This document shows positions 16,683 to 17,916 of a stretch of DNA of 64,000 bases, one piece after another. The DNA is taken from positions 1 to 64,000 of the forward strand of contig CAMPAL010000001.1 in NCBI GenBank assembly GCA_946631855.1. Reading direction: 5' to 3'. Source of the DNA: an uncultured Treponema sp. (GTDB lineage: Bacteria; Spirochaetota; Spirochaetia; Treponematales; Treponemataceae). The notes under the pieces are model-generated. The model did no database searches. It was not told the DNA's origin and was given only the letters and a program-made list of their open reading frames with translations. Within the stretch, counting starts at the first letter, position 1. Each line of letters opens with the position of its first letter. Both the position numbers and the translations under genes were made by a program.

Positions 16683-17916
16683 AATGTATCACGAGTTATT
16701 ATTTCTAAAATCTTTTAAAAAGATTTTTAATTTTTTAAATATATATTTAGAAACCCCTATCTCGTTGTACATTCACTTTTTTATTTCTTTTCGGGGTTAT
16801 TAAAATGCATAATGATATATGATTCTTCTTTTTTATATAATACAAATTCGAATGTATAACATGTTATTGAAACAAGTAATACAATAAAATTGCGTTAAAG
16901 TCTTATAGAATAAAGGAATAAGATTAAATGTACAACGAGTTAGATTTATTAAACTTTTTAAAATGCTTTTTTGATTTTTTAAAATATAATATAAAAACCC
17001 GAAACTCGTTGTACATTTAATTCTTTTGCGGCTTAATGTATAACGAGTTAGTAAAACAAGTGATACATTAAAACTATGATAAGCTGTTATAATACAAAGA
17101 AATGGAAGATAAATGTACAACGAGTTAGGATTTATAAACTCTTTTAAAAACTTTTTTGAAATTTTAAAATATAAATAGAAACCCCTTATCTTGTTGTACA
17201 TTTACTTATTTCTCTTTATTTTATAACACTTTAGCCGAGTTTTAATGTATAACGATTTATTAAAAATGTATCATTTTTAGGTTAGGATTTGTATTATATA
17301 AAAAGAAGGAGGTATTTATTATACTTAAGAAATCAAAAGAGATTGAATGTACAACGGGTTAAGAGGGTTTCAAATATATTTTTAAAATTTCAAAAATCTT
17401 TTTAAAAGATTTTAGAAAAGTTAACTCATTATACATTTACTTGTTTTTCTTTGTATTTTAAGGGTTTAGGAGAATTTTTAATGTATCATATGTTAGAAAA
17501 CTTGTTATACATTCACTTGTATCATATTTTTGTTATACATTAAAAAAGGCAGAAAAATAGATTCCGCCTTACATATAATATAGAAAAGATACATTCGTGA
17601 AAAGAAATAAAAAGTTGAATGTACAACGAGTTACGGGTTTTTAATTATATATTTAAAATTTCAAAAAAGTTTTTAAAAGAGTTTAGAAAAGATAACTCGT
17701 TATACATTCACTCCCATTTCCTTACTCTATAAGGATTTAACTCACTTTTAATGTATCACGAGTTGCTCTAACATATGATACATTAAAATCGCGCTAAAGT
17801 CTTATAATACAAAGAAGTAGAATTAAATGTACCACGAGTTAACTTTTATAAACTTTTTAAAAAACTTTTTCAAAATTTTAAAATATAATATAAAACCCTC
17901 TAACTCGTGATACATT
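16683..17916. repeat. Array of six ~91-bp inverted-repeat elements (A) alternating with short palindromes (B)
   Basis: A units at 16683-16773, 16927-17017, 17112-17202, 17346-17437, 17618-17708, 17826-17916; ends AATGTACAACGAGTTA / TAACTCGTTGTACATT. Confidence 0.95.

What the first reader, a model, noticed from the sequence alone, without database searches (positions are those of the whole stretch)
16683..17916. Array of six fixed-length (~91 bp) inverted-repeat elements alternating with short palindromes
Seen directly: six units of 91, 91, 91, 92, 91 and 91 bp, each bounded by variants of AATGTACAACGAGTTA and its inverse. Each has an asymmetric AT-rich core (…AAACCCCT on one side), and units occur in both orientations: 16683, 16927, 17112 and 17826 one way; 17346 and 17618 the other. 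Between them lie short B palindromes such as AATGTATCACGAGTT-gctct-AACATATGATACATT. The B palindromes are often flanked outward by a repeated spacer (CATTAAAA..gc.cTAAAGTCTTATAATACAAAG..) that contains a TATAAT-like box. The array sits at a divergent gene junction. Near-constant length with sequence drift implies selection on geometry. Possible roles: replication origin or iteron system, centromere/packaging or nucleoid-organising sites, or a set of divergently transcribed hairpin RNAs.
Basis: partly seen in the sequence, partly recalled or inferred. Interest (0 to 1): 0.88.

Follow-up and report, generated by a model that had tools for sequence, protein, structure and literature searches.

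The report
Repeated origin-like arrays in huge phage
A giant bacterial virus carries about 15 copies of an elaborate control array spread along its genome, and a DNA module that recurs in these arrays is also written inside the gene for its replication-starting enzyme, which suggests the arrays are many built-in start points for copying the viral DNA.

Summary
The window belongs to a ~366-kb huge phage binned with a bacterial genome. The phage has 53 such 'A' elements in 15 arrays. A 16-bp half-site (AATGTA-NN-ACGAGTTA) is paired inward at 75 bp (A) or 19 bp (B), and B and A are joined at 57 bp into a rigid 167-bp unit. Arms and flanks show no compensatory changes, so these are DNA (probably protein-bound) sites, not hairpin RNAs; no transposon signature was found. 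Arrays sit mostly at divergent gene junctions beside phage promoters. I found two more modules: D (site, polypurine tract, AT-rich stretch; 11 array copies) and E (promoter plus immediate terminator). D's only other copy lies inside a PF03090 replicase gene, in a linker-coding region; two distant relatives carry D-like elements twice inside their rep genes. All 11 array D's turn their AT-rich end to the same end of an A element. Best reading: dispersed modular replication origins built on a Rep-linked core, like lambda ori in logic but multiplied. Function is inferred, not shown. A transcription-enhancer role is the main rival.

The parts
16683..17916 (.). Array 1: six A elements, B palindromes, two D modules and one E module, between a (-) gene (16265-16636) and a (+) HD-domain gene (18038-18655)
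16683..16773 (+). A element 1 (no B partner upstream)
16927..17017 (+). A element 2
17112..17202 (+). A element 3
17346..17437 (-). A element 4 (92 bp)
17618..17708 (-). A element 5
17826..17916 (+). A element 6
16851..16885 (.). B palindrome of unit 2 (right arm degenerate)
17035..17069 (.). B palindrome of unit 3
17480..17513 (.). B palindrome of unit 4 (58 bp from A element 4)
17750..17784 (.). B palindrome lying 57 bp from both A element 5 (-) and A element 6 (+), i.e. shared
17275..17323 (+). D module: TTAGGTTAGGATTTGTATTATATAA + purine tract + AT-rich end facing A element 4
16800..16856 (-). degenerate D module (2 mismatches in the 22-mer), AT-rich end facing A element 1
17542..17583 (-). 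E module: phage promoter CTATATTATAT followed at once by a hairpin terminator (predicted transcript of about 35 nt)
17961..17967 (+). CTATATT phage-type promoter of the HD gene, 44 bp beyond A element 6
40033..40122 (+). lone A element (90 bp) with no B or D
57398..58032 (.). Array 3, between the DnaX-like gene (56058-57320, -) and the PolA-like gene (58124-60238, +): A at 57398(-), 57600(+), 57768(-), 57942(-); B at 57524 and 57900
57709..57730 (+). D core in array 3, AT-rich end facing the A element at 57768
58069..58075 (+). CTATATT promoter upstream of the PolA-like gene, 36 bp beyond the A element at 57942

Best explanation
The arrays are dispersed replication origins of a huge phage. The origin core is module D: a specific site, a polypurine tract and an AT-rich stretch. 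D is recognised, directly or indirectly, by the phage's replicase (Rep, PF03090, primase-like fold), whose gene carries a copy of D in a linker-coding region, as lambda carries ori inside gene O. The B-box-A units are a separate nucleoprotein control element: a phage protein not identified here binds the 16-bp half-sites at rigid spacing, and the complex is polar. The CCCC-side end of A points at duplex to be opened, either D's AT-rich end or a CTATATT promoter, which helps melting or loading and couples initiation to divergent transcription of the flanking genes. SHOWN: anatomy, geometry, polarity, lack of RNA covariation, sharing of D with rep, D-like repeats in two relatives' rep genes, location mostly at divergent junctions. 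INFERRED: that Rep acts at D, that A/B bind a protein, and that replication starts here.
For: Apart from the array copies, the D 22-mer (at most 2 mismatches) occurs once in the bin, inside ORF C7:33880-35334(-). That ORF hits PF03090 Replicase above cut-off (34.6 vs 26 bits); the best PDB match of its model is the S-2L PrimPol AEP domain (prob 1.00, E 3.8e-3). D encodes residues 260-269, at the edge of the low-confidence linker (pLDDT < 50 at 216-260 and 270-273). In the Rep family this peptide is the conserved island of a hypervariable linker, and 33 of 51 members carry a lineage-specific copy of it twice, in linker and C-terminus, as expected of DNA-level constraint. DNA of two relatives (IMG/VR L123; same-genus genome G004) shows these as near-identical repeats with the same plan (site, purine tract, AT-rich stretch), antisense to rep. 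11 of 11 array D's turn their AT-rich end to the CCCC end of A; 15 of 18 nearby CTATATT-type promoters lie on that side, mostly at 30-48 bp. Of 13 arrays with both flanks known, 9 are at divergent junctions, 4 tandem, none convergent (genes of 70 aa or more, ORFs inside arrays set aside). Strand-corrected GC3/AT3 skew shifts across arrays in the direction expected of an origin (small effect, p about 0.01-0.04 in most settings). In T4, three active origins lie at transcription divergences with skew shifts, and oriF/oriG pair a promoter with an AT-rich DUE (PMC3016281).
Against: No replication or binding data. D was found in only 9 of 15 arrays (of the other six, one is at a contig end and one is a lone A). 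The Rep gene has no A/B half-sites, so the link between half-sites and Rep is unproven. The skew effect is small, not corrected for multiple tests, and rests on mechanical ORF calls. DNA of close relatives of this phage was not found in the collections, so conservation of the arrays is untested. The two relatives with D-like repeats inside rep show no arrays in the stretch seen.
Confidence: 0.52

Rival explanations
1. The arrays are transcription enhancers (upstream activating sequences): a phage activator bound to the A/B half-sites switches on the flanking divergent CTATATT promoters, and D and E are further regulatory promoters or attenuators.
For: Arrays abut CTATATT promoters, 15 of 18 on the CCCC side of A and mostly at 30-48 bp; CTATATT is the phage's main promoter motif (48 vs 4 expected at -60 to -18); E is a promoter with terminator. 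Polarity toward promoters fits an activator.
Against: Most CTATATT promoters have no A element; D is embedded in rep, and D-like elements recur inside rep genes of relatives, which a promoter enhancer does not explain; several tandem units often lie far from any promoter.
Confidence: 0.22
2. The arrays are partition, packaging or nucleoid-organising sites: a phage DNA-binding protein assembles at about 24-kb intervals along the genome.
For: Fixed half-site geometry and presence on every phage contig.
Against: No ParB-like hit among the families shown for the scanned proteins (only the top 25 families were listed); does not explain D in rep or the preference for divergent junctions.
Confidence: 0.1
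3. D is a trans-acting antisense RNA against rep mRNA, made from many array copies to limit replication, and the A/B units are its regulatory parts.
For: D is antisense to rep over about 35 nt of near identity.
Against: In G004 the exact D-like element is found only inside rep, twice, and in L123 the repeats are also within rep, so no trans source is seen; no phage-type promoter motif precedes D.
Confidence: 0.06
4. A elements are small non-autonomous mobile elements (MITE or REPIN/BIME-like) that have multiplied in intergenic space.
For: Terminal inverted repeats, fixed length, many dispersed copies, mosaic clusters.
Against: Flanks are mirror-symmetric rather than direct duplications; within-array copies are no more alike than between arrays; the only Y1 transposase of the bin is on a non-phage contig; A, B, D and E keep a common polarity.
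Confidence: 0.05
5. The A elements encode structured hairpin RNAs.
For: Each can fold as a long hairpin.
Against: Arm agreement is at the shuffled level (752 vs 744 +/- 6), flank pairing energy equals shuffled (-20.7 vs -20.8), alifold energy equals the column-permuted control; no Rfam match.
Confidence: 0.03

Closest known systems
Phage lambda ori inside gene O
   Same: Origin core embedded in the coding sequence of the initiator; specific sites next to an AT-rich region that unwinds (PMC6022878)
   Different: Lambda has one origin with four iterons inside O; here D is copied to 9 arrays elsewhere in the genome and combined with a separate inverted half-site system; Rep is a primase-like PF03090 protein, and no relationship to O was seen
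Phage T4 multiple origins (oriA-oriG)
   Same: Several origins per large phage genome; active ones at transcription divergences with skew shifts; promoter plus AT-rich DUE (PMC3016281)
   Different: T4 origins share no sequence motif; here all arrays share the same modular units and most share an initiator-linked core
ColE2-type plasmid Rep and its origin
   Same: Primase-fold Rep that binds an origin and primes for DNA polymerase I (PMC4538821); this phage also has a PolA-type polymerase; the ColE2 Rep DNA-binding domain appears as a weak fold match
   Different: Weak similarity only; multi-copy arrays have no counterpart known to me in ColE2
REPIN/BIME and MITE arrays
   Same: Inverted short repeats at set spacing, intergenic clusters in both orientations
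   Different: Strict geometry, common polarity to D and promoters, no Y1 transposase found on the phage, no target-site duplication
N15-type dispersed centromeres
   Same: Inverted-repeat protein sites dispersed in a phage genome (own knowledge)
   Different: No ParB-like protein seen; D-rep link unexplained

Membership tests
Initiator-linked replication origin (lambda ori / plasmid iteron type) | Origin core lies in or next to the initiator gene | tested here: met
   D's only copy outside arrays is inside the PF03090 gene; D-like repeats inside rep in two relatives. That this protein is the initiator is inferred from its family.
Initiator-linked replication origin (lambda ori / plasmid iteron type) | AT-rich unwinding region beside the specific site | tested here: met
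   Site + purine tract + AT-rich end in most array D copies and in both relatives; unwinding itself not tested
Initiator-linked replication origin (lambda ori / plasmid iteron type) | Multiple initiator binding sites (iterons) at set spacing | tested here: inconclusive
   Half-sites are multiple and rigidly spaced but inverted, and absent from rep; binding by Rep unknown
Initiator-linked replication origin (lambda ori / plasmid iteron type) | Supports autonomous replication | not testable with these tools
   needs an experiment
T4-type multiple phage origins | Location at transcription divergence with strand-bias shift | tested here: inconclusive
   9 of 13 arrays at divergent junctions, none convergent; skew shift small, p about 0.01-0.04
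Structured RNA family | Compensatory base changes in the stem | tested here: not met
   no Rfam match
MITE | Target-site duplication flanking terminal inverted repeats | tested here: not met
   Flanks are mirror images, not direct repeats
REPIN/RAYT | Y1 (REP-associated) transposase in the replicon | tested here: not met
   PF01797 only on contig C6, not a phage contig
ParABS partition sites | ParB-type protein encoded with the sites | tested here: inconclusive
   No ParB among shown hits, but lists were cut at 25 families

The most novel reading that the evidence does not exclude
A bacterial virus that replicates its 366+ kb genome from about 9-15 dedicated, sequence-related, polar origin modules: an initiator-linked core copied out of the rep gene and married to a rigid, oriented accessory element made of inverted half-sites. 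This would be a built-in multi-origin programme, unlike the motif-less origins of T4 or the single origin of lambda.
Probability: 0.4. Interest if true: 0.9.

Novelty: new variant of a known kind. Interest (0 to 1): 0.76.

Why it matters
How huge phages start and distribute replication is largely unknown; the survey I could read infers replication mode from GC skew (PMC7162821). If right, this gives sequence-defined origins in a huge phage, a clear initiator candidate, and a natural case of origin multiplication as a phage genome grew. Even under the transcription rival it defines an unusual rigid, polar nucleoprotein control element, and its binding protein becomes directly findable.

Tried and rejected
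Hairpin RNA and Rfam: rejected. Phased A-tract curvature of the A core: no 10.5-bp periodicity above permuted control, so bending is not claimed. The TTATARAATAARG box as the phage gene promoter in either direction: not enriched upstream of genes. Sigma-70 scan of the array: 13 sites vs 10.8 +/- 3.1 in shuffles. Relatives of the array: GenBank phages, plasmids, IMG/VR half-site and pair patterns (15, 17, 35, 36: lone hits only, as chance would give), GTDB genomes (34), 60 sampled relatives of the bin (18): none with an array. PolA relatives exist as proteins (49-96%) but their DNA was not found in the collections (16, 27, 28, 29, 32). Distant human-gut phage records show no comparable enriched words. 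Literature searches found no description of such arrays.

Full report
WHAT IS THERE. The six 91-92 bp units are real at the stated coordinates and orientations. The half-site AATGTAYMACGAGTTA (up to 3 mismatches) occurs 38 times in the window vs 1.9 +/- 1.3 in shuffles. The window is most of contig C1 of a 2.65-Mb, 217-contig bin. Tetranucleotide composition of the 49 largest contigs separates nine contigs (C1, C2, C4, C7, C13, C16, C19, C24, C32; 366 kb) cleanly from the rest (distance <= 0.103 vs >= 0.196), and exactly these nine carry the arrays. Their genes are phage-like: terminase, UvsX, DnaB-type helicase, primase, T4-like topoisomerase II, weak baseplate hits, PolA, DnaX-like clamp loader.

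GEOMETRY. There are 53 A elements (arms 75 bp apart in 47, 74 in 5, 76 in 1) in 15 arrays, and one further 65-bp variant. The B palindrome (arms 19 apart) sits 57-58 bp from A, so the full unit has half-sites at 0, 19, 76 and 151; a left B arm lies at 75-77 bp from A in 38 of 53. In the window, one B (17750-17784) lies 57 bp from the A on each side. Half-site positions are nearly invariant except 7-8, with a softer position 14. Copies within an array are no more alike than copies in different arrays (core identity 0.725 vs 0.740). The elements are therefore old, stable and constrained rather than recent tandem duplicates.

DNA, NOT RNA. Left and right arms of the same element agree hardly better than shuffled arms (752 vs 744 +/- 6). 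Position 7 pairs at the expected rate, flank pairing energy equals shuffled pairs, and alifold energy equals column-permuted alignments. The arms are best read as protein-recognised half-sites with a free 2-bp centre. No protein was shown to bind them.

SURROUNDINGS. Of 13 arrays with both flanks known, 9 fill a divergent junction, 4 lie between tandem genes and none between convergent ones (genes of 70 aa or more, ORFs lying inside arrays set aside), against 63 divergent, 66 convergent and 264 tandem junctions in the phage. CTATATT is the phage's main promoter motif, peaking 20-50 nt upstream of start codons. Of 18 CTATATT-type promoters within 60 bp of an A element, 15 lie on the CCCC side of A, mostly at 30-48 bp. 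Two further modules live in arrays. E is a CTATATTATA promoter followed at once by a hairpin terminator (five copies, all in arrays). D is TTAGGTTAGGATTTGTATTATATAA, a purine tract, and an AT-rich end such as TTATTATATATAATAA (11 copies in 9 arrays).

THE D LINK. D has exactly one other copy in the bin: antisense inside ORF C7:33880-35334(-). That ORF is a PF03090 Replicase protein. Its predicted structure (mean pLDDT 68, so modest) has as best PDB match the AEP domain of phage S-2L PrimPol (prob 1.00, E 3.8e-3). D codes for residues 260-269, at the edge of the low-confidence linker around 216-273. In the family alignment the D-coded peptide is an island in a hypervariable linker, and 33 of 51 homologues carry it twice, each lineage with its own version. 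DNA was obtained for two distant relatives. In IMG/VR locus L123 and in same-genus genome G004 the rep gene holds two near-identical repeats with the plan site, purine tract, AT-rich stretch, in the same antisense orientation. In G004 these are the only exact copies. So D looks like a DNA-level element tied to this replicase across distant replicons, and this phage has extra copies of it in its arrays. In all 11 array copies the AT-rich end faces the CCCC end of an A element 37-71 bp from the D 22-mer.

INTERPRETATION. A site plus AT-rich stretch embedded in the initiator gene is the logic of lambda ori in gene O (PMC6022878). T4 gives a precedent for several origins per genome, with active ones at transcription divergences with skew shifts, and promoter plus DUE at oriF/oriG (PMC3016281). 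Strand-corrected third-position GC and AT skew shifts across arrays in the origin direction (p about 0.01-0.04 in most settings; small). 109 of 156 genes within 6 kb point away from the nearest array, though operon structure makes that number non-independent. I therefore read the arrays as dispersed origins, with A/B units as a polar accessory element that points at duplex to be opened (D or promoter). Rep acting at D, a protein at A/B, and initiation at arrays are inferences. The transcription-enhancer reading is the chief rival, and the two can both be true.

LIMITS. DNA of the close relatives (PolA 63-96% identical) was not found in the collections available. The bin is fragmented, and smaller phage contigs may be missing. 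D was found in 9 of 15 arrays. Family scans of pooled proteins listed only the top 25 families, so a binding protein may have been missed.

Noticed in passing
window 16600-18040 and genome-wide: The phage's gene promoter motif is CTATATT (48 observed vs 4 expected at -60 to -18), with a second enriched variant ACTAATT (26 vs 1.7); neither is the TTATARAATAARG box between B and A, whose role is unexplained.
   Followed up: partly
phage contigs (a member of alignment A3): One phage-contig protein matches the flagellar outer layer family FlaA (PF04620, E 1e-7), which to my knowledge is a spirochaete family and hints at the host; the bin's genus was not named by the tools.
   Followed up: no
window 49253-50551; L027 9823-11292; L014 14600-15994: Three TnpB-like (OrfB_IS605/Cas12f1-like) genes on the phage, one directly beside an array on C32.
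   Followed up: partly
L011 15792-17474; L014 9617-11266; L011 13432-15030: Phage-encoded eukaryote-type topoisomerase IB, Cpn60-family chaperonin and CCA/poly(A)-polymerase-like protein.
   Followed up: no
window 12488-13876 (-): Beta-CASP ribonuclease-like protein (Beta-Casp + RMMBL) with relatives in human-gut phage records.
   Followed up: no
window 3692-3766: ARAGORN reports a tRNA-like gene with a two-base anticodon; a D-like sequence (5 mismatches) followed by a possible terminator lies just downstream at 3829.
   Followed up: no
P0121-P0171; L123 9917-11521; L126: PF03090-type replicases whose genes carry the same peptide/DNA motif twice (linker and C-terminus) look like a general case of origins embedded in a rep gene.
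   Followed up: partly
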